A stretch of 39,339 bases of DNA from Solirubrobacterales bacterium (GTDB taxonomy: Bacteria; Actinomycetota; Thermoleophilia; Solirubrobacterales; Solirubrobacteraceae): the NCBI GenBank assembly GCA_025964115.1, contig JAOPZM010000091.1:1-39339 (forward strand). The letters are read 5' to 3'. Of this stretch, positions 19,181 through 30,568 are shown piece by piece. How positions within the stretch are numbered: position 1 is the first letter of the stretch; every line of letters begins with the position of its first letter. Below the pieces are notes generated by a model. It worked only from the letters and a program-made list of their open reading frames with translations, had not been told where the DNA came from and ran no database searches. The position numbers and the translations under genes were made by a program.

Positions 19181-22108
19181 CTAGACGAACCAGTTGATCT
19201 CGAGCGATTCTTCGCGGGTCTGCGTGATCGTCAGGGCCAGGCCCATCTGTTCGATCGCCGCTTCGCCGAATTTGGCTTCGAGCACGTCCGGCGTTCCGCC
19301 TTCGAAGCGTTCCGGTTTCTGTTTGCCGCCGCTCTCGACGTATTTGAGGATCTCCGAGGTCGCCATTTTCCCGGCCACGTCTTTCACGAGCACCGAGCCC
19401 ACGACCTGCACCGGAACGGTGCCACACGTGAATTCGACCAGTGGCCCGGTGTGCCCGATCGGGAAGAGATCGGTGGCGACGTGTTTCAGCGGTTTGCTTT
19501 CCCACCCGAGGACGCCTTCGAGCGTGCTCGTCACGACTTCGCCTTCGGTGAGGGCGCCGGCGGTCGTGCATTTGGTCGCCTGCGATTCGCACCCGGTGAG
19601 CGTCAGCACCACGCCACTCACGCTTTTCGGCCCGGTGAATTCGCCCGTGCCGGTCTCGCCTTTGCACGTGACGAGCGTTTTTTTGACGGTTTCGAGCTTG
19701 ATCGTCGTCAGTTCTTTGAAGGCGGTCGTGAATTTCGGTTTCGAACCCGGCCCCGACGCCCATTCGAAGCCGAATTTTTCGGCCGTGGCGGGAACCGTGC
19801 AGGAGGCGCTCGAATACGCGCCTTTGACGCCTTTGGCGAGTTTGATGCATCTTCCGACTTCCGGCGCGGCGAGCGTCGTGAACGTCTGATCTTCGCCTTC
19901 CCCCGTGCCTTTCGCGTTCGTCGCGACGATCCGGAAGTGGTAGGTGGTGCCTGCCACGAGCGGTTCCGCCGTGGCCGACACCGCCACGGGGAAGACCCCC
20001 GAGCCCGGCAGCGTCGTGCAGGGCACGCTGGAGCTGTAGGGCAGGGTGGTGCCGTATTCGAAGTGGCAGTCGGTCACGGACGAGTTGTTCGGGTTCACGG
20101 TGGCGTTCAGCTTCGCCGAGGTCTGTTTGATCGTCGAGGCCGCTCCCGTGACCGCCGTCGGCGCGGTCGGAGTCGGGCTCACGAACACCCATACCGCCCC
20201 TTTTTCGAGGTTGTCGTTGGGGCCGCCGATCAGCGCCGTGGACGCGTCGGCCGACAGCGCGACGCTGTTGCCGAAGAGGCCCTTGCCGCTCTCGCCGGTG
20301 CCCGTGAGCTTCGCGCCCTGCTGTTCCCAGATCGTCCCAGACCGTGTGAACACCCAGGCCGCGCCGATTTCGAAGTTGTCGGTGACCCCCCCGATCAGCG
20401 CCGTGTTCCCGTCGGCGGACAGCCGCACGCTGACCCCGAAATGGCCTTTGCCGGTCTCGCCGCTACCTGTGAGCTTTGAGCCCTGTTGTTCCCAGGTGAT
20501 GCCCGAGCGTGTGAACACCCACGCCGCGCCGATTTCCGTGTTATCGCCGCCGCCGGCGATCAGCGCCGTGTTGCCGTCTTCCGACAGCGCCACGTTGAAA
20601 CCGAGACGGGCTTTGCCCGTCTCGCCGCTTCCGGTGAGCTTGGCGCCCTGCGCTTCCCAGGTCGCGCCCGAGCGGATGAAGGCCCACACCGCGCCCACTT
20701 CTTCGTTGTCACCGCTGCCGCCGATCAGCGCCGTGTTCCCGTCAGCCGAGAGCGCGACGCCCACGCCGAATTCACCGGGCTGTTCGCTTGTGGTGATCTC
20801 CCCGGCTCCCGTGATCTTCGGGCCCTGCTGCGTCCAGGTCGCTTCCGTCCGGGTGAACACCCACGCCGCACCGACTTTGAAGTTGTCGCCCGGGGCACCC
20901 ACCAGCGCCGTGTTGCCGTCAGCCGCCAGCGCCACCCGGAAGCCGAGATGGCCTGCGCCTTTCTCGCCAGCGCCTGTCAGCTTCGCGCCCTGCTGCGTCC
21001 AGGTCCCTTCCGTCCGCGTGAACACCCACGCCGCACCGACTCCTTTGTTGTCGCCCCCGCCGCCGATCAGCGCCGTGTTCCCATCGGCCGACAGCGCCAC
21101 GCCGAAGCCGAAGTGGCCTTCGCCGATCTCTCCCGCGCCGGTGAGCTTGGCGCCCTGCTGCGTCCACGTGGTTCCCGAGCGCGTGAATACCCACACCGCG
21201 CCGACGCCTGTGTTGTCTTCGCTGCCGCCGATCAGCGCCGTGTTCCCGTCCGCCGACAGCGCAACGCTCCCGCCGAGATGGCCCTTTTCGATCTCTTCAG
21301 GGGTCCCGGTGAGCTTGCCGCCCTGCTGGAGGAACGGGTCGATCGACAGCGGATAGCGCGAGCCCCGGTCATCGATCCTGAGCTGCAGACCTCCGTGTCC
21401 GAGCTGCATCGTCGCGGGCAGCTGCCTGCCCGTCGCGTCGACTGCGCTCAGCTGGCCGTAGGTGAGCGCCGTGGCGCCCGAACGCGTCCGGAACAGGACC
21501 TGCCCGCCGGCCTGCCGCCCCACGAGCGTCCCCCCCATCCCGAGCGCCAGCACGAGTGCGCCGCCGCCCTGCGGGCGCGTGCGCACGTTGAAGGCCTGCT
21601 CCAAGCCATAGGGACCGTTCCGGTAGAGCTCATCGATCGATCCGCGGCCGTAGAGCACCTGGCTCCCTGTCGCCGAGGGTGCGGCCGTGCTCACGCGCTG
21701 GAGCTGCGTGCCGCGGCCGACGGAGGCGAGCGAGAGCTCGAGCGTCCCGGCGGCGACGCTCAGATGCGCCCCTGACGCGGCGAAGCTGGTCGTGATCGAG
21801 CCTCCGGCGGTCTGCAGCGAGTCGCCGTGGCGGACCGCCCAGTAGCCGCGCTCGGCGCGGCCGATGCTCGCCGAGGCCACGGGGGCGAGGCTTGCCGGCA
21901 CGTAGTTGCGGTGGCTGGCGGTCAATGAACGGGTGGGTGCCGCCCCAGCGTGCAGTGCCACGGCGATCGCGGCGACACAGGCGAGTGCCGCGGCAACAAC
22001 GACCAGGGCGGGCCTCTGCAGGCGCCGGAGATCCAGGCTGACGCCACGGGCCGATGCCGCGCCGCCATCCAGGCTCAACACTCCGCTCCGTCCACCCCTG
22101 CTCGGCAC
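19181..22108 (-). CDS. Giant secreted repeat protein: 7 propeller-like repeats, Fn3-like domain, six-Cys C-terminal module
   Basis: About 975 residues. An N-terminal hydrophobic segment (ALVVVAAALACVAAIAVALH) is a signal peptide or anchor. Residues 60-260 form a domain ending RIDDRGSRYPLSIDPFLQQG. Residues about 261-648 hold seven FG-GAP-like repeats of 54-59 residues, with the core VALSADGNTALIGG, then DN-x-x-GAAWVFTR and W-x-QQGAKLTG; this suggests a seven-bladed propeller. One Fn3-like domain (CHFEYGTT...YHFRIVATN) follows, then a 228-residue C-terminal module with six Cys ending in EINWFV. It is likely a cell-surface or secreted binding protein. The start is uncertain: GTG at 22108 (GGAAGG upstream) is preferred and GTG at 22081 is the alternative. 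The frame is open further upstream but overlaps the divergent Xre gene. Confidence 0.8.
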   Translation of the reverse strand: MPSRGGRSGVLSLDGGAASARGVSLDLRRLQRPALVVVAAALACVAAIAVALHAGAAPTRSLTASHRNYVPASLAPVASASIGRAERGYWAVRHGDSLQTAGGSITTSFAASGAHLSVAAGTLELSLASVGRGTQLQRVSTAAPSATGSQVLYGRGSIDELYRNGPYGLEQAFNVRTRPQGGGALVLALGMGGTLVGRQAGGQVLFRTRSGATALTYGQLSAVDATGRQLPATMQLGHGGLQLRIDDRGSRYPLSIDPFLQQGGKLTGTPEEIEKGHLGGSVALSADGNTALIGGSEDNTGVGAVWVFTRSGTTWTQQGAKLTGAGEIGEGHFGFGVALSADGNTALIGGGGDNKGVGAAWVFTRTEGTWTQQGAKLTGAGEKGAGHLGFRVALAADGNTALVGAPGDNFKVGAAWVFTRTEATWTQQGPKITGAGEITTSEQPGEFGVGVALSADGNTALIGGSGDNEEVGAVWAFIRSGATWEAQGAKLTGSGETGKARLGFNVALSEDGNTALIAGGGDNTEIGAAWVFTRSGITWEQQGSKLTGSGETGKGHFGVSVRLSADGNTALIGGVTDNFEIGAAWVFTRSGTIWEQQGAKLTGTGESGKGLFGNSVALSADASTALIGGPNDNLEKGAVWVFVSPTPTAPTAVTGAASTIKQTSAKLNATVNPNNSSVTDCHFEYGTTLPYSSSVPCTTLPGSGVFPVAVSATAEPLVAGTTYHFRIVATNAKGTGEGEDQTFTTLAAPEVGRCIKLAKGVKGAYSSASCTVPATAEKFGFEWASGPGSKPKFTTAFKELTTIKLETVKKTLVTCKGETGTGEFTGPKSVSGVVLTLTGCESQATKCTTAGALTEGEVVTSTLEGVLGWESKPLKHVATDLFPIGHTGPLVEFTCGTVPVQVVGSVLVKDVAGKMATSEILKYVESGGKQKPERFEGGTPDVLEAKFGEAAIEQMGLALTITQTREESLEINWFV
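20170..21325 (-). repeat. Seven tandem propeller repeats inside the secreted protein gene
   Basis: Seven near-identical coding repeats of 162-181 bases. A common core on the plus strand (GATCAGCGCCGTGTTCCCGTC and variants) recurs near 20227, 20393, 20556, 20718, 20899, 21061 and 21226. The fourth repeat counted from the N-terminus is 4-5 codons longer than the others. High DNA similarity allows copy-number change by recombination. Confidence 0.85.
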
Positions 22109-22249
22109 CCTGCACCACCCTTCCCAGTCCTTGACGATGCGCTCCCCGCCGATATGGGCCTGCCTCCAAGCTGGCCCACCGCTATCCCTTCGCGTCAAGG
22201 TAGCGGATATTGCCGTCCGAGGGAAACGCAATGATGGCTTTCGATCGGC

Positions 22250-22804
22250 ATGGAACGCCCTTCCGCAGTCATCGAGCAGCTTCGCGCCGAGCGCGGCCTG
22301 TCCCAGGGAGAGGCCTGTGCGCGCGGGGGTCTGCCGCCGGCGACCTGGAGCATGGTCGAGTCCGGCTTCACGGCGAACCCGCACCCCGCAACGAAGCTGC
22401 GGATCGCCCGCGCTCTCGGCGTGACGCCGAGCAGCATCTGGCAGATCCGACCCGGGCCGCTTCATCTCGAGGACGTCGACGACCCCCGCTGGAAGACGGC
22501 CGTGCGGGCGATGGCGCGGCGACTGGAGCGCGAAGGGTCCCTGCAGGAACGACGACGCTTCGCCAGGCACCTCGCCGCCGTCCTCGACTGGGCGGACCCG
22601 GGCGGCACCGGCGACTGGGACGCCGATGAAGGCCCGTGGGCGGAGTTCTGGCAGCTCGGGCACTCGCTGCTGTTCGACCCGGAGAAGGACCCGATCGCGA
22701 TCATCGAGGGCAAGCTCGTCGAGCGGGACCTCCAGAGCTTCACGCCCGAGACGCCCGTGCGCATGATCGCCGCCAGGCGCCGCACCGGCGACGGCGTCAG
22801 ATAG
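22250..22804 (+). CDS. Xre-family HTH protein with an unassigned C-terminal domain
   Basis: A 184-residue protein. The N-terminal Cro/C1 HTH (about 1-65) reads VIEQLRAERGLSQGEACARG, then TWSMVESGFTANPHPATKLR and IARALGVTPSSIWQI. The remaining 115 residues (RWKTAVRAMARRLEREGSLQ...EFWQLGHSLLFDPEKDPIAI) are helical and not recognised. It is probably a DNA-binding regulator with a small sensing or dimerisation domain. Start ATG 22250; the ribosome site is weak. It is divergent from the giant secreted-protein gene across a 141-bp gap and precedes the GGDEF-EAL gene in the same direction by 187 bp, so it may regulate either. Confidence 0.78.
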   Translation: MERPSAVIEQLRAERGLSQGEACARGGLPPATWSMVESGFTANPHPATKLRIARALGVTPSSIWQIRPGPLHLEDVDDPRWKTAVRAMARRLEREGSLQERRRFARHLAAVLDWADPGGTGDWDADEGPWAEFWQLGHSLLFDPEKDPIAIIEGKLVERDLQSFTPETPVRMIAARRRTGDGVR

Positions 22805-22991
22805 CCCGTCGCGATTCGTGGGCTAAAGCACGAGAGGGCCGCGGGACCGCCGCGAGGCAGGCCGTTTTGCAGGCGTAAAGGCCTGTCGGTCATTTGTCGA
22901 GATGAGGGCAGGATGCACATGAACCCATGCCTTCAGGCTCGATCAAGCCAAAGACGCACGTGCGCGCGAGTTGGGAGCACTCAGGATCGCC
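22805..22991 (+). promoter_or_regulatory. Leader region of the GGDEF-EAL gene with two hairpins
   Basis: Two short inverted repeats are seen: TAGCCC (22802-22807) / GGGCTA (22820-22825), overlapping the upstream stop, and CAGGCC (22858-22863) / GGCCTG (22880-22885). The first may be a terminator of the Xre gene. I compared the region with the c-di-GMP (GEMM) riboswitch consensus and found no convincing match. A promoter is not obvious. Confidence 0.35.
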
Positions 22992-25583
22992 ATGCCCGAT
23001 AGCGAAACGCCCCAACACGACAACCCCACGGGCGACCCGACAGCCGCCCCCTCAGAGGCAGGACCCGTCAGCGGCCCTCCCGAGACGCCTGCTCAGCGCC
23101 CCGCCGAGCAGGTCGCCGACCCGCAGGCCCGCGACGCCGGCACTGCGGAGACGACGCCGGACGCTCCGGCGGTCGACCGCCTCACGCGGGTGAGGAATCT
23201 CGTCCGCAGCCGCAGGCTCGTGTGGGGCGCCGTGGCGCTCGTGTGCGTCGCGGCCGGGACCGTCGGCTCGATCCTCGGCGCCCAGACGGTGGCGCACAAA
23301 GATGCGAGCAAGGCGCGGCAGGCCTCGCGACAGACCTCGGCGGACGTCGCCTCCACGTTGAAGGCATCGGTCCAGCACCAGGAAGACTTCGCCATCGGCG
23401 CCACCACCTTCTTCGCCGGCAACCCCAAGGCGTCCCCCGCGGAATTCGAAGCGTGGGCGAAGTACGGCGACGGGTTCCACCGCTACCCCGAACTCGCGAA
23501 GCTCAGCCTCGTCACGCTCGTCCGCGCCTCAGAACTCCCCGCCTTCGAAGCGAAGATCACCGGCCGGCCGCTGAAACCGCCGCTCACAAGCCGCACCTTG
23601 AAAGGGCTGCGGGTGCAGTCCGCGCCGTCGCCGGGCTCAACCCTTCGGATCGTCCCCTCCGGCAAGCGTCCCGCCTACTGCTTCGTGATCGCCGGGCTTC
23701 CGAAGAGCGCCGCGAGGTACACGCCCCGGGGCCTTGACCTGTGCGCCGTGACCCCCGGTCTGCTCGACTCGCGGGACTCCGCGCAGAGCCTCTACACGAG
23801 CGTCTCCGCCAAGAACGTCGGCGCCCTCGGAATCGCAAGGCCGGTCTACAAGGGTGGCGTGCCGCCGACTGGCTTCACGGCCCGCAGGGAAGCCTTCGTC
23901 GGCTGGCTGCGCGAGGTGCTCCTGCCGACCGTAGTGCTGCAGCAGGCGCTGCAGGGCCACCCCGAAGCCGCCGTCCGCCTGCGTCACAAGACGGGCTCCT
24001 CGAGCGCGATCTTCACCGGCGGCACGCCCGGGCCCGGCGCGCAGAGCACCACCACGAACCTTCACAACGGATGGAGCGTCCGCAGCTTCGGCGGCCCCGT
24101 CGACGCCGCCGTGCTCGCCGACTGGCACGCGCTCGTGCTGCTGATCGCCGGGATCCTGCTGAGCCTCATGCTCGCCGTGCTCGTCGTCGTCCTCGGAGCC
24201 GGCCGCCCGCGCGCCGCGGCGCCGGCGGTCAAGCCCCGCGAGGTCCCCCACGAGGATCTCTACGACCAGCTGACCGGTCTCCCCAACCGCGCGCTGATGA
24301 TGGACCGCGCCCAGCGCATGCTCGCCCGCGCAAGCCGCGAGTCGGGACTGCTCGCCGGAGCGCTGTTCATCGACATCGACTGGTTTGAGAACGTCAACGA
24401 CAAGCTCGGGCAGGCCGCCGGAGATGAACTCCTTGGAACGGTCGCCGAACGGCTCGAGACGGTGATCCGCGCTCACGACACGGTGGGCCGGCTCGGAGGA
24501 GACGAGTTCGTCATCCTCGTCGAGTCGGCGGCCCGCGGCGCGCGGCTTGACTCGCTCGCCCGGCGCGTGATCGAGGCGCTGCACGAGCCGGTCAACATCG
24601 CAGGCTTCGGACCGAGCATCTTCCTGACTGCCAGCATCGGGGTCGCCTTCGGCCGCTACGCCACCCCCGACGATCTGCTGCGCGACGCCCACCTGGCCCT
24701 CGAGGCGTCGAAGGCCGCGGGGAAGGACCGCTACACCCTCTTCAACGCGAACATGCGCTCCGTCATCGAGGGGCGCGGCGTGCTCGAGACCGAGCTGGGC
24801 GCGGCGCTCCAGAGCAAACAGCTCTTCCTGATGTACGAGCCCGTCTATGACCTGACGAGCCGCAAAGTGGTGGGCCTCGAGGCGCTGCTGCGCTGGCGCC
24901 ACCCCAGCCAGGGCGTCCTCGGCCCCGAGCACTTCATCGCGCTGGCCGAGGAGACGGGGCTGAGCGTGCCGATCGGCCGCTGGATGCTCGAGGAGGCCGC
25001 CACCAAGGCCGCCGCGTGGAACGTGACCGGCCACAGGGTCAGCGTCTCGGTGCCCGTCACGGCGACCCAGCTGGCTCGGGACGGCTTCCCGACCGACGTC
25101 CGGCGGGCGCTCCTGCAGTCCGGGATAGAGCCCTCGCTGCTCACGCTCGAGATCTCAGAGAGCACAGTGCTGCAGGACATCGAGGGTGTCGCCGGGCGCC
25201 TGCAGGAGCTGAAGGAGCTCGGCGTGCGCATCGCGATCTACGACTTCGGCAGCGGCTACGCGCATCACTCCGACCTGCGCAGGCTGCCGCTCGACCTGCT
25301 CGTCGTCGACCGCTCCTCGCTCGCAGCCCCCGACGACGAGGACTACCGCAGCTGGCTGCTGCAGGCCATCCTGGTGCTCGCCAAGGACCTGTCGCTGACG
25401 GTGATAGCCAAGGGAATCGGCACCGAGCAGGAGATGATCACGCTGCAGACGATGGGCTGCACGCTCGCCCAGGGACCCTTCATGGGCTCGCCCGTCCCGG
25501 CGGAGGCCGTCGTCGAGCGGCTCTTCGACGCAGGCCTCGCGCCCGGCGGCATGATCGCCGAACGCGGCCAGTACACCCCCTGA
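22992..25583 (+). CDS. Membrane GGDEF-EAL protein with a degenerate EAL domain
   Basis: An 863-residue protein: a Pro/Ala-rich cytoplasmic N-terminus (1-75), TM1 (about 77-98), an extracytoplasmic CHASE-like sensor (about 100-375), TM2 (about 380-402), GGDEF (about 420-582) and EAL (about 592-845). The GGDEF site is intact: FIDIDWFENVND (459-470) and GGDEF at 502-506, with an RxxD inhibitory site (R493, D496), so c-di-GMP synthesis is likely. In the EAL domain E630 and E720 remain. However, the usual Asn is P688, the first Asp of DDFG is Y750, the Lys of LKID is V771 and the Glu of AEG is K807. Phosphodiesterase activity is therefore improbable, and it may bind c-di-GMP or act only as a regulator. 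The ATG at 22992 is preferred over TTG at 22971. Confidence 0.9.
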   Translation: MPDSETPQHDNPTGDPTAAPSEAGPVSGPPETPAQRPAEQVADPQARDAGTAETTPDAPAVDRLTRVRNLVRSRRLVWGAVALVCVAAGTVGSILGAQTVAHKDASKARQASRQTSADVASTLKASVQHQEDFAIGATTFFAGNPKASPAEFEAWAKYGDGFHRYPELAKLSLVTLVRASELPAFEAKITGRPLKPPLTSRTLKGLRVQSAPSPGSTLRIVPSGKRPAYCFVIAGLPKSAARYTPRGLDLCAVTPGLLDSRDSAQSLYTSVSAKNVGALGIARPVYKGGVPPTGFTARREAFVGWLREVLLPTVVLQQALQGHPEAAVRLRHKTGSSSAIFTGGTPGPGAQSTTTNLHNGWSVRSFGGPVDAAVLADWHALVLLIAGILLSLMLAVLVVVLGAGRPRAAAPAVKPREVPHEDLYDQLTGLPNRALMMDRAQRMLARASRESGLLAGALFIDIDWFENVNDKLGQAAGDELLGTVAERLETVIRAHDTVGRLGGDEFVILVESAARGARLDSLARRVIEALHEPVNIAGFGPSIFLTASIGVAFGRYATPDDLLRDAHLALEASKAAGKDRYTLFNANMRSVIEGRGVLETELGAALQSKQLFLMYEPVYDLTSRKVVGLEALLRWRHPSQGVLGPEHFIALAEETGLSVPIGRWMLEEAATKAAAWNVTGHRVSVSVPVTATQLARDGFPTDVRRALLQSGIEPSLLTLEISESTVLQDIEGVAGRLQELKELGVRIAIYDFGSGYAHHSDLRRLPLDLLVVDRSSLAAPDDEDYRSWLLQAILVLAKDLSLTVIAKGIGTEQEMITLQTMGCTLAQGPFMGSPVPAEAVVERLFDAGLAPGGMIAERGQYTP

Positions 25584-26514: not shown

Positions 26515-29500
26515 CTAGACGAACCAGTTGATCTCGATCGCTTCGGCGCTCGTCTGGGTCACCGAGAGGCTGAGCCCCGCCTGTTCGAAGGGTCCCCCGG
26601 CGATGGACGCTTCGAGTAGTTCGTCCGGTTCGCCTTCGAAGTGTTCCAGCCGCTGCCTGCCGGCGAGCTGCACGTATTTCACGATCGTCGAGTTCGACAT
26701 GCGGCCCTCGGTGACGGGGGCGAGCACCGAGCCCCGGACCGTGAGCGAGGCCACGCCACACGTGGCTTCCGCGATGGGGGCCCCGGCTTCGGCCGGGAAG
26801 AGAGCCTGCGCGACGGTGTGTTCGGCCCTGCTTTCCCATCCGAGGACGCCCTGGAGCGTCTTCGTGACAATTTCGCCTTCGGCCGCTCCCATGCTGCTGC
26901 ATGGGGAAGCCCACGCTTTGCAGCCGGTGAAGTGGACCACGAGGCCGCCGACCGTCCGCAGGCCGGTGTATTCGCCCGAGCTCGTCTCGCCCGTGCACTT
27001 CACTTTGACCCTGCCGACGGTTTCGAGCGTAGGCACCGTTTCCGAGCGCGACGCCGTCGTGAACTGGCGGTTCGGGCCCGGTCCCGGCAGCCATTCGTAG
27101 GAGAAGCTTTCCGCTGTGGCCGGCGAGGTGCAGGTGCCGGTCGAGAACCTGCCCCTCGTGCCGCCCGGCAGCCGCACGCAGCGTCCGTATTCGGGGGCGC
27201 CTTCGGTCGTGAACGTCTGATCGGCGCCTTCCGATGCGCCGCCTGAGTTCGTCGCCTGGACGCGGAAGTGGTAGGTCGTGTTCACCTTCAGCGCCGTCAG
27301 CTGCGCCGAGACGGCGACGGGCGTGGAGCCCGCGCCCGGCGCCGGCGTGCAGGGCACGCTCGACCCGTAGGCGGTCGAGTTCCCGTATTCGAAGTGGCAG
27401 TCGCTGACTTCGCCCCCGTTCGGGTTCACCGTCGCGCCGAGAGCGGCCGTCGTCTGCTTGACGGCCGAGGCGGCGCCCGTTTCCACCGTGGGCCGGTTCG
27501 GCAGCGTGGAGAACTGCTGGTCGGACCCGAGGCTCGTCCCGCCGGGGTTCGTCGCGACGATCCGGAAGTGGTAGGCGGTGTTCGGTTGAAGGGCCGACAG
27601 CGCGGCCGTCACCGCCACGGAGCTCGAGGCCGACCCCGGTGAGGAGGAGCAGGGCGCGCTCGACCCGTAGGCCGTCGTCGTGCCGTAGTCGAAGTGGCAG
27701 TCGCTCAGTTCCGCCCCGTTCGGGTTCACCTTGCCGCCGAGGCTCGCCGCGGTCTGGGCGATCGATGAAGCGGCGGTGGTTTCCACCTTTGGCGCGTTGG
27801 GCAGCGTTTTCAGGGACTGGTCGCTTCCGAAGCTCGTGCCGCCGGCGTTCGTCGCGACGATCCGAAAGTGGTAGCCCGCGTTCGCAGTGAGCGCGGTCGG
27901 CTGGCCCGTCGCGGGCACGGGCGAGGTGCCTGATCCCGGAAGCGAGACGCACGGCACGCTCGAGCCGTAGGCTTCGGTGCTCCCGTAGTCGAAGTGGCAG
28001 TCGCTGACTTCGCCCCCGTTCGGGTCGACCGTCGCGTTCAACGTCGCCGAGGTCTGATTCAGCGCGGAGGCCGTACCCGTTTCGACCGCAGGGGCGTTCG
28101 GCAGCGTCGTGAAGCTCTGGGAGCCGTCGGTGCTCGTCCCGCCCGAGTTCGTGGCGACGATCCGGAAGTGGTAGCCGGTCACCGGGTTGAGGCCCGTCAC
28201 CGCCGCGGAGACCGCGACTTCACCGCTGCCCGACCCCGGGAGTGCCGAGCAGGGAACGCTCGAGCCGTAGGATTCGCCGGCGCCGTATTCGAAGTGGCAG
28301 TCGCTCACTTCGCCGCCGTTCGGGTTGACGGTCGCGTTGAGCATGGCCGAGGTCTGCGTCAGCGACGACGCCGGCTTGGTCACGACCGCCGGCCGGTTGC
28401 TCGACGCGGTCGTCAGCATCTGGTCGCCGCCGACTCCCATCCCCGCGGGGTTCACGGCGACGATCCGGAAGTGGTAGCTGCTCTTCGCGGCAAGCCCCGC
28501 CACGGGCGCCGCCACCGGCACCGGGCTCGAGGCCGACCCCGGCGAGGAGGAGCACGGCGCGCTCGACCCATAGGAGGCGGTCGTGCCGTATTCGAAGTGA
28601 CAGTCGCTGACTTCGCCGCCGTTCGGGTTGACCATCGCGTTGAGGGTGGCCGCGGTCTGGCCCACGCCCGAGGCCGGGTCCGTTTCGGCCGTGGGAGCGT
28701 TGGCCAGGGTCGAGAACGACTGATCGGCGCCTGGCGTCGTCCCGCCGGGGTTCGTCGCCCTGATCCGGAAGTGGTAGGCGGTGCTCGCCTTCAGGCCCGC
28801 GAGCGTGGCCGAGACCGCGACGGGGCTCGAGCCGGACCCTGGAGACTGCAAGCAGGCGACGCTCGACCCGTAGGAGCTCGATGTGCCGTATTCGAAGCGG
28901 CAGTCGCTGACGGCGCCACCGCTGGGATTGACGCTGCCGTTCAACGTCGCGGACGTCTGCTTGATCGAGGAGGCCGCGCCGGTTTCGACGATCGGCGGGC
29001 TGGAGCCCGGCGGGTTCGACGCGGGGCCCGGTTCGGGGTGCGGCGAGAGCAGGAGCGGGGGGCGCGGCTGCTGGCTGAAGTCGAAGTCGCTCGCCAGGTC
29101 GCCGAGGCCGGGGGCTTCTTCGCGGACGGTGGGACGGGCGTCGGGCCGTCCGTCGGTGGCGGGGTTCAGGCGGGCCTTGTTGAGGAAGGCGTCCTCGATG
29201 AACTTCAGGTAGGCGTCGTGGCTGAGGCGCTGATGGTCGATGAAGCCCTTCTTCGCGTAGGGGCTTATCACCAGGCCCGGGACGCGGATGCCGTAGCCGT
29301 TCTGGTCGACCACCGGCGGTGTGACGTGGTCGTAGAAGCCGCCGAGGTCATCCCAGGAGACGAGGATCGCCGTGGTGCCCCAGCAGGGGCTGCGCATGAT
29401 CGAGTTGACGAGCGTCGTGATGTAGCTCTGTCCCTTGGAGACACGGCTGGGGGGATGCTCGGAGACTTCCTGGCTGGGCACGACCCAGGAGACGTTCGGC

Positions 29501-30486
29501 AGGCCGCAGGTGCTCGTTTCGTGGATCGCCGAGTAGAGGCTGTTAATCGACTGGATGTTCCCCACCTGCCCGTCCTGCTGCACGTCGGTGAAGTAGGGAA
29601 GCTGGTTCCAGATGCTGATCGTTTTGGGCCCCTGTTTGACCGGTGCGCACGTGAGCGCTTCGTCGGCCTGGCAGTCGGGCTCGGAGCCTTCGAAGATGTA
29701 GTAGCGCCAGCTGACTTTCGCCTTGTAGAGGAGGTAGGTCAGGTCGGTGAAGGTGCGCGGGCCCTGCGCCACGCCGGCGGGGTCCAGGGAGCTCGTGCAG
29801 TCCATCGGGTTGGGATCCCCGGTGGGACAGGAGGCAGACCAGCCCGAGACGAGGAACAAGTGCTCGGGCAGGCTCCACGACGCGGCCGACTCGAACATGT
29901 TGTCCTGCAGTGTGAAGTTCTGCGCGTAGGTCCAATAGTTGGGAATCTCGCGCGCGTCGTGATAGCCCATCACGTCGAGGCAGTTGGTCTGCGAGGCTTT
30001 CGGGTTGCTGCACGGGAGGCAGCCCGCCGGGTCGGTGGTGCATTTGCTTTTTTCCTCCACCTGTTCGACGAAGCCGTCCATCCTTCCGCCGTTGACGTCC
30101 GAGCGCGTCGCGGCCATGCCGTGGGGCCCGCCGAAGTTGAGGTCGTTGGCGTTGTGGTAGGGCGCCACGCAGCCGCCGTTGAACGGGTCGTGGATGCACA
30201 CTTTTCCGGGGATTCCGTTGGCGCCCGGGTAGGTGCCGAAGTACGAGTCGAACGACCGGTTCTCCTGCATGATCATCACGATGTGCTGGATGTTGTGAAT
30301 CCCGTCGATCGGCGCCGCCTGCGCCCGGGAGGCCGCGCCGAGGCAGGCGAGCACCGCCATCGCGAAGACCGCCATGCGCGCCGAGAGGCCGCGAGACAGC
30401 GTCGGGCGTCCGACCGCGCCCAGCGCGAAGCTGGACCGTGACCGGTCCTGTCCTCCGGCTTGCGTTGAGACCCCTCTCACCGCCAC
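26515..30486 (-). CDS. Secreted phosphoesterase (phospholipase C / acid phosphatase family) with six Fn3-like repeats and a six-Cys C-terminal module
   Basis: About 1323 residues. The signal peptide (MAVFAMAVLACLGAASRAQA) follows a 37-residue N-terminal extension. The phosphoesterase domain spans about 58-470: HIVMIMQENRSFDSYFGTYP (catalytic ENRSFD near residue 75) and ILVSWDDLGGFYDHVTPPVV near 375 carry the motifs of bacterial phospholipase C/AcpA enzymes. These hydrolyse phosphatidylcholine-type lipids or phosphomonoesters outside the cell. Six Fn3-like repeats of about 99 residues follow (about 499-1095; DCHFEYG...YHFRIVATN...F-TL), then a 228-residue C-terminal module like that of the 19181 gene, also ending EINWFV. 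GTG at 30486 is chosen for GAAGGGA upstream; ATG at 30375 (start of the signal peptide) is the alternative. Confidence 0.88.
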   Translation of the reverse strand: MAVRGVSTQAGGQDRSRSSFALGAVGRPTLSRGLSARMAVFAMAVLACLGAASRAQAAPIDGIHNIQHIVMIMQENRSFDSYFGTYPGANGIPGKVCIHDPFNGGCVAPYHNANDLNFGGPHGMAATRSDVNGGRMDGFVEQVEEKSKCTTDPAGCLPCSNPKASQTNCLDVMGYHDAREIPNYWTYAQNFTLQDNMFESAASWSLPEHLFLVSGWSASCPTGDPNPMDCTSSLDPAGVAQGPRTFTDLTYLLYKAKVSWRYYIFEGSEPDCQADEALTCAPVKQGPKTISIWNQLPYFTDVQQDGQVGNIQSINSLYSAIHETSTCGLPNVSWVVPSQEVSEHPPSRVSKGQSYITTLVNSIMRSPCWGTTAILVSWDDLGGFYDHVTPPVVDQNGYGIRVPGLVISPYAKKGFIDHQRLSHDAYLKFIEDAFLNKARLNPATDGRPDARPTVREEAPGLGDLASDFDFSQQPRPPLLLSPHPEPGPASNPPGSSPPIVETGAASSIKQTSATLNGSVNPSGGAVSDCRFEYGTSSSYGSSVACLQSPGSGSSPVAVSATLAGLKASTAYHFRIRATNPGGTTPGADQSFSTLANAPTAETDPASGVGQTAATLNAMVNPNGGEVSDCHFEYGTTASYGSSAPCSSSPGSASSPVPVAAPVAGLAAKSSYHFRIVAVNPAGMGVGGDQMLTTASSNRPAVVTKPASSLTQTSAMLNATVNPNGGEVSDCHFEYGAGESYGSSVPCSALPGSGSGEVAVSAAVTGLNPVTGYHFRIVATNSGGTSTDGSQSFTTLPNAPAVETGTASALNQTSATLNATVDPNGGEVSDCHFDYGSTEAYGSSVPCVSLPGSGTSPVPATGQPTALTANAGYHFRIVATNAGGTSFGSDQSLKTLPNAPKVETTAASSIAQTAASLGGKVNPNGAELSDCHFDYGTTTAYGSSAPCSSSPGSASSSVAVTAALSALQPNTAYHFRIVATNPGGTSLGSDQQFSTLPNRPTVETGAASAVKQTTAALGATVNPNGGEVSDCHFEYGNSTAYGSSVPCTPAPGAGSTPVAVSAQLTALKVNTTYHFRVQATNSGGASEGADQTFTTEGAPEYGRCVRLPGGTRGRFSTGTCTSPATAESFSYEWLPGPGPNRQFTTASRSETVPTLETVGRVKVKCTGETSSGEYTGLRTVGGLVVHFTGCKAWASPCSSMGAAEGEIVTKTLQGVLGWESRAEHTVAQALFPAEAGAPIAEATCGVASLTVRGSVLAPVTEGRMSNSTIVKYVQLAGRQRLEHFEGEPDELLEASIAGGPFEQAGLSLSVTQTSAEAIEINWFV
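27241..28990 (-). repeat. Six tandem Fn3-like repeats inside the phosphoesterase gene
   Basis: Six coding repeats of about 297-300 bases. Each holds a conserved core (plus strand ...CCGTATTCGAAGTGGCAGTC..., encoding DCHFEYG) near 27394, 27691, 27990, 28288, 28585 and 28883. Each carries two Cys (in DCHFEYG and in the following SVPC/SAPC), probably a disulfide per domain. They probably serve as a spacer that holds the catalytic domain away from the wall. Confidence 0.85.
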
Positions 30487-30568
30487 CCCGAATCCCTTCG
30501 ACGTCGTGCGATGCAACCCGCGGGAATCTAACAGTTCCAATGCGTCCGCGAGCGCGCATACAGCTCGA

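What the first reader, a model, noticed from the sequence alone, without database searches (positions are those of the whole stretch)
19181..19868. Shared six-cysteine C-terminal module ending EINWFV in two giant secreted proteins (first copy)
The last 228 residues of the propeller protein match those of the phosphoesterase at 26515-27201. Shared features are six Cys in the same order, GVLGWES, ATA-x-F, RFEGG/HFEGE and an identical last six residues at the exact C-terminus. The two genes also share 23 identical bases over the stop codon. Different catalytic parts with a common end point to a sorting, anchoring or secretion domain not described by known signals (no LPxTG, no C-terminal TM).
Basis: partly seen in the sequence, partly recalled or inferred. 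Interest (0 to 1): 0.8.

Follow-up and report, generated by a model that had tools for sequence, protein, structure and literature searches.

The report
Shuffled C-terminal barrel of secreted proteins
Two large exported proteins of an uncultured soil actinobacterium end in the same undescribed 228-residue folded domain, which in its genus also occurs alone and on the ends of many unrelated secreted proteins, so it looks like an interchangeable binding or attachment part rather than a secretion signal.

Summary
The last 228 residues of the window's FG-GAP propeller protein and phosphoesterase are homologous (49% identity, one gap, six Cys in register, identical EINWFV ends). They belong to an undescribed family: 14 places in this genome, matches in 11 of 23 other species of the genus, almost nothing elsewhere in the class and phylum samples. 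The module caps 26 multidomain exported proteins seen here (FG-GAP, RCC1, subtilase, phosphoesterase, TIG/PKD/fn3), always at the exact C-terminus; about 38 further proteins are little more than signal peptide plus module. AlphaFold predicts one all-beta domain (pLDDT 96.6): a 2-Cys hairpin plus a 4-Cys beta-barrel. It is very unlikely to be an export signal (phosphoesterase orthologues lack it; stand-alone copies carry no cargo) or an outer-membrane barrel (no Omp85). The domain tree shows that it moved between partners. Stand-alone copies are encoded beside a conserved pair of giant secreted proteins (NHL propeller + ~1150-residue protein) at 12 loci in 9 genomes, including another genus. 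Best reading: an optional extracellular binding or docking domain that attaches diverse secreted proteins to a common surface or matrix partner. The ligand is unknown. EINWFV itself is not a signal.

The parts
19181..22663 (-). Open frame of the FG-GAP propeller protein; the true start is probably near the GTG at 22042 or 22135, just before a signal-peptide/TM-like stretch; FG-GAP_2 repeats, one fn3-like domain, then the module
19184..19867 (-). C-terminal module, first copy (228 aa, six Cys, ends EINWFV)
19736..19867 (-). Two-Cys 'PE-x-GRC...C...FEW' hairpin sub-part of the first copy
19184..19735 (-). Four-Cys beta-barrel core of the first copy
26515..30540 (-). Open frame of the phosphoesterase protein (probable start near 30375 or 30471, Sec signal peptide); PF04185 domain, about six fn3-like repeats, then the module
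26518..27198 (-). C-terminal module, second copy (227 aa, six Cys, ends EINWFV)
19181..19203 (-). 23 bases identical to 26515-26537 (stop codon plus the end of EINWFV)

Best explanation
The module is a folded, disulfide-stabilised extracellular domain made of a small two-Cys hairpin packed with a four-Cys up-and-down beta-barrel. It is an optional cassette that has been joined repeatedly to the C-termini of Sec-exported enzymes, propellers and Ig-type proteins in one genus of Solirubrobacteraceae, and it is also made alone. After export by the N-terminal signal peptide it probably binds a common partner outside the cell (a cell-surface or matrix component, perhaps the NHL-propeller/giant-protein pair beside which many stand-alone copies are encoded). 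It would thus keep or concentrate the attached protein there, much as cell-wall-binding or dockerin-type domains do. Shown: homology, C-terminal position, variety of partners, shuffling, signal peptides, genetic linkage of stand-alone copies. Predicted: the fold and disulfides. Inferred: binding, the partner, and retention at the surface.
For: Family of copies in the own genome and 11 other species of the genus. The module ends 0-3 residues from the C-terminus in the multidomain carriers. Partners by Pfam include FG-GAP_2, PF04185, RCC1, Peptidase_S8, TIG, PKD, fn3, Ig. Signal-peptide-like N-termini in carriers whose start lies in the sequence at hand, and no TM in the module. AlphaFold pLDDT 96.6, pTM 0.90, one all-beta domain. 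Cys at the six positions in 44/44, 45/48, 48/48, 49/49, 49/49 and 49/49 rows. Tree: the window phosphoesterase module is sister to the window FG-GAP module, the G003 phosphoesterase module is far away, and RCC1 and S8 carriers are scattered. Phosphoesterase orthologues without the module. Stand-alone genes within 1 kb on the same strand of the NHL/giant pair: 13 of 38, against 1 of 26 multidomain genes, Fisher p 0.005; 12 loci in 9 genomes including a different genus.
Against: No ligand, binding site or localisation data. The fold search gives only generic 8-stranded barrels (Foldseek best E 0.024; VIA Z 9.5 to OmpW, tied with OmpA and similar), so function cannot be read from the fold. Most genomes with the giant protein lack the module, so it is not a required part of that system. 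The multidomain module genes are mostly not near that pair.
Confidence: 0.5

Rival explanations
1. Lipocalin/YceI-like small-molecule binder: the barrel holds a hydrophobic ligand (lipid, polyprenol, pigment) and gives each carrier protein a ligand-dependent property; attachment is not its role.
For: The predicted core is an 8-strand up-and-down barrel; VIA also matches YceI/polyisoprenoid-binding proteins, BcnB, DynF and de novo ligand-binding barrels at Z about 6-7.5.
Against: Those matches are in the range that common arrangements reach. No sequence match to YceI or lipocalin models in any of 49 members. Ligand binding does not by itself explain why it is joined to so many different extracellular proteins.
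Confidence: 0.2
2. C-terminal sorting/secretion signal read by a dedicated machine (as T9SS CTD, PEP-CTERM, LPxTG).
For: Exact C-terminal position in the multidomain carriers; varied N-terminal parts.
Against: Stand-alone signal peptide + module proteins. Orthologues without it. No conserved terminal peptide. Sortase does not track the module: none found in module-bearing G003, G007, G022, G023 and found in module-free G012, G016, G017. No Omp85.
Confidence: 0.08
3. Protective or folding cap: a rigid disulfide-rich domain that only shields the C-terminus from proteases or helps folding, with no binding partner.
For: High-confidence compact fold with the last strand as the C-terminus, six conserved Cys, extracellular setting.
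Against: Stand-alone expansion (up to three in tandem) and linkage to the NHL/giant pair are not explained.
Confidence: 0.15
4. Outer-membrane barrel, i.e. an autotransporter-like arrangement with passenger plus C-terminal barrel.
For: Best structural matches are OmpW/OmpA barrels (VIA Z 9.0-9.5, rmsd 3.0-3.7, 122-146 aligned); the passenger + C-terminal barrel layout is reminiscent.
Against: No Omp85/BamA in the own genome or 24 relatives, while the control search finds it in diderm genomes. Several strands have polar or charged residues on both faces. Conserved Cys in the barrel. The A9 family gives the same OmpW-type matches, so these may reflect strand number only.
Confidence: 0.03

Closest known systems
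T9SS C-terminal domain (P. gingivalis RgpB CTD; PMC4804311)
   Same: Folded beta domain at the exact C-terminus of varied exported proteins with N-terminal signal peptides.
   Different: The CTD is an Ig-like 7-strand sandwich of about 65-75 residues with the export signal in its last 22 residues, cleaved by PorU, in diderm Bacteroidetes. Here: 228 residues, six Cys, barrel, stand-alone copies, no conserved terminal peptide, no Omp85 found.
Non-covalent attachment or docking domains of secreted proteins (cell-wall-binding repeats, SLH, CBMs, dockerins; from general knowledge)
   Same: Optional, shuffled C-terminal accessory domain on unrelated enzymes and adhesin-like proteins; also encoded alone.
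   Different: No convincing match to any Pfam or NCBIfam model; ligand not known.
YceI / lipocalin-type soluble barrels and TbpB/HtaA-type surface barrels
   Same: Beta-barrel arrangement (VIA Z about 5.5-8.9 over the two models).
   Different: No detectable sequence relation; Z values are near background; different Cys pattern and extra hairpin.
A9 family: small secreted 4-Cys beta-barrel proteins beside the same NHL/giant pair (found here)
   Same: Signal peptide, about 160-residue predicted barrel, a C-x-GE-x-C stretch that aligns (hhalign E 4e-4, probability 34%), beside NHL/giant genes, once C-terminal to a protease-like protein.
   Different: Homology not established; no hairpin; different position of the fourth Cys.

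Membership tests
C-terminal sorting signal (LPxTG / sortase substrate) | LPxTG-like motif, hydrophobic stretch and basic tail at the C-terminus | tested here: not met
   C-terminus is a structural beta strand; no TM-like stretch in the module
C-terminal sorting signal (LPxTG / sortase substrate) | Processing enzyme co-occurs with carriers | tested here: not met
   PF04203 in 16 of 24 genus genomes, not tracking the module; some of the genomes are incomplete
C-terminal sorting signal in general | Export or localisation of carriers depends on it | tested here: inconclusive
   Orthologous phosphoesterases lack the module; localisation itself cannot be tested here
T9SS CTD | Diderm host with outer-membrane secretion machinery | tested here: not met
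   No Omp85 in 25 genomes, control positive; T9SS genes themselves not searched
Autotransporter / outer-membrane beta-barrel | Omp85/BAM insertion machinery in the genome | tested here: not met
Autotransporter / outer-membrane beta-barrel | Each strand with a nonpolar lipid-facing side | tested here: inconclusive
YceI / lipocalin | Sequence match to the family model | tested here: not met
   No such Pfam match at E<=1 in 49 members
YceI / lipocalin | Fold and ligand-binding cavity | tested here: inconclusive
   VIA Z about 6-7 only; cavity not examined
Cell-envelope attachment domain (functional class) | Optional, shuffled domain on several unrelated secreted proteins | tested here: met
Cell-envelope attachment domain (functional class) | Binds an envelope or matrix component | not testable with these tools
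   needs a binding experiment

The most novel reading that the evidence does not exclude
The module is the docking part of a lineage-specific extracellular assembly. The NHL-propeller/giant-protein pair with stand-alone modules forms a surface scaffold, and enzymes, propellers and Ig-type proteins that acquired the module plug into it: a cohesin-dockerin-like system in soil actinobacteria built from an undescribed barrel domain.
Probability: 0.2. Interest if true: 0.75.

Novelty: new variant of a known kind. Interest (0 to 1): 0.5.

Why it matters
It is a domain family missing from Pfam and NCBIfam that connects many secreted proteins (64 examined here, from 13 genomes) of uncultured soil and permafrost Solirubrobacteraceae, whose cell surface is almost unknown. 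The linkage to a conserved giant-protein pair gives a concrete partner to test, and orthologous enzymes with and without the module are a natural experiment on what it does.

Tried and rejected
Pfam and NCBIfam on the module, alone and on 49 members: nothing convincing. Sequence profile against the PDB: no match. Foldseek against PDB and viral models: no match below E 0.001. G308 hit in another family: rejected as contamination (99.97% identical over 2888 bp to a G002 locus; genome flagged 7% contaminated). EINWFV as a signal tag: rejected, only two of 49 copies have it. The 23 shared bases as gene conversion or a regulatory site: not needed. Sortase as partner: no co-occurrence. Omp85 dependence: none found. 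Widening to Thermoleophilia at large: profile searches of 232 order, 399 class and 396 phylum genomes found almost nothing outside the genus; the first-look limits of the class and phylum scans could hide very remote relatives. Homology with the A9 small-barrel family: suggestive only. Homology with the A8 pair: no support. Alignment-based scans of genome contigs failed twice for lack of conserved stretches before a three-row alignment worked. Literature searches gave no description of this module.

Full report
Observation. The two open frames at window 19181-22663 and 26515-30540 (minus strand) end in homologous stretches of 228 and 227 residues: 49% identity, 66% positives, one gap, six Cys in register, identical EINWFV ends. 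The first carries FG-GAP_2 repeats and an fn3-like domain, the second a PF04185 phosphoesterase domain and fn3-like repeats; the module itself has no convincing Pfam or NCBIfam match. The 23 shared bases are real, but codon use explains them once the six residues are shared.

It is a family. A search of the window's own genome (a 3.0-Mb MAG, 84.6% complete) found 13 places with one sequence and 14 with the profile. Of 23 other species of the genus, 11 have it, with 1 to 16 places each; the rest have none even at E 1. In the whole order (232 genomes) only two genomes of one other genus add a match each. A class sample of 399 and a phylum sample of 396 genomes add nothing reliable (the G308 hit is contamination). 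Named carriers are MAGs labelled Solirubrobacteraceae, Solirubrobacterales or Actinobacteria.

Architecture. In 26 multidomain carriers the module reaches the C-terminus to within 0-3 residues. The N-terminal parts are FG-GAP or RCC1 propellers, subtilases, phosphoesterases, TIG, PKD, Ig and fn3 domains, or unknown. About 38 more proteins are little more than signal peptide plus module. Carriers whose N-terminus is in hand have a Sec-type signal stretch, and the module has no TM-like segment. The module has two parts: a 44-residue two-Cys hairpin and a 185-residue four-Cys core. The hairpin can be duplicated, missing (only in stand-alone proteins) or placed after the core. A few divergent stand-alone copies have extra residues after the core.

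Fold. AlphaFold on a 49-row alignment gives pLDDT 96.6 and pTM 0.90: a single all-beta domain whose last strand (206-225) runs to the C-terminus. PDB comparison yields only generic 8-strand barrels: VIA Z 9.5, rmsd 3.3, 134 aligned to OmpW, tied with OmpA, OprF and others; soluble barrels follow at Z 6-7.5. An outer-membrane barrel is very unlikely: no Omp85 in 25 genomes of the order (control positive), and several strands with polar residues on both faces.

Shuffling and dispensability. In the domain tree the window phosphoesterase module is sister to the window propeller module (support 99/90), next to a propeller module of another species, whereas the module of the orthologous phosphoesterase in G003 lies elsewhere; RCC1 and subtilase carriers are also scattered. 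Phosphoesterase orthologues occur in 14 genomes of the genus (57-71% identical), but among those whose ends are in hand only the window's and G003's carry the module. Others end after the catalytic domain, or with fn3 or a different C-terminal domain (some loci are cut before the gene's end, among them one with fn3+TIG). The module is thus an optional cassette, and there is no sign that it is needed for export.

Linkage. Many stand-alone module genes sit on the same strand beside a conserved pair: an NHL-propeller/fn3 protein and a ~1150-residue secreted protein, often with a basic two-Cys tail. The usual order is module - NHL - giant - module, at 12 loci in 9 genomes, including one of a different genus. 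Thirteen of 38 stand-alone genes lie within 1 kb of the pair against one of 26 multidomain genes (p 0.005; copies within one genome are not independent). The giant protein itself is in 101 of 232 genomes of the order, mostly without the module. Beside some of those pairs there are other small secreted four-Cys proteins (A9 family) with a predicted barrel as well (pLDDT 92.8); homology with the module is suggestive but unproven (hhalign E 4e-4, probability 34%; same generic PDB matches).

Interpretation. A folded domain with stand-alone forms, optional presence on orthologues, many partners, no conserved terminal peptide and no co-occurring sortase does not look like a sorting signal. The T9SS CTD, the best known folded C-terminal export domain, is smaller, Ig-like and tied to an outer membrane (PMC4804311). 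The best explanation is a non-covalent binding/docking domain acting outside the cell, with the NHL/giant pair or a surface component as candidate partner. The binding step is inference. A lipocalin-like ligand-binding role and a mere structural cap are the main rivals.

Noticed in passing
L016:286-6881 (G000:C111); L067:9207-16960; 101 of 232 genomes of the order: Conserved pair of giant secreted proteins (NHL propeller + ~1150-aa protein without Pfam match), often ending in a basic two-Cys tail such as KKRxACExxARKKYG; widespread in the order and without Pfam description.
   Followed up: partly
L165:6827-7441, L174:7601-8879, L177-L190: A9 family of ~160-aa secreted four-Cys beta-barrel proteins beside NHL/giant pairs; once as C-terminal domain of a protease-like protein (L188) and in tandem (L187, L190).
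   Followed up: partly
L198-L203, L205: Phosphoesterase orthologues without the module often end in a different ~125-aa C-terminal domain (RQxPRFH...TCxxRC...GY), another exchangeable end.
   Followed up: no
upstream of the ORF starts in L173, L042, L033, L011, L006: Recurrent upstream reading 'GKRSS' a few codons before the Met of small secreted genes, suggesting a conserved leader or ribosome-binding region carried along by duplication.
   Followed up: no
window 22971-25583: CHASE-GGDEF-EAL protein encoded between the two module genes.
   Followed up: no
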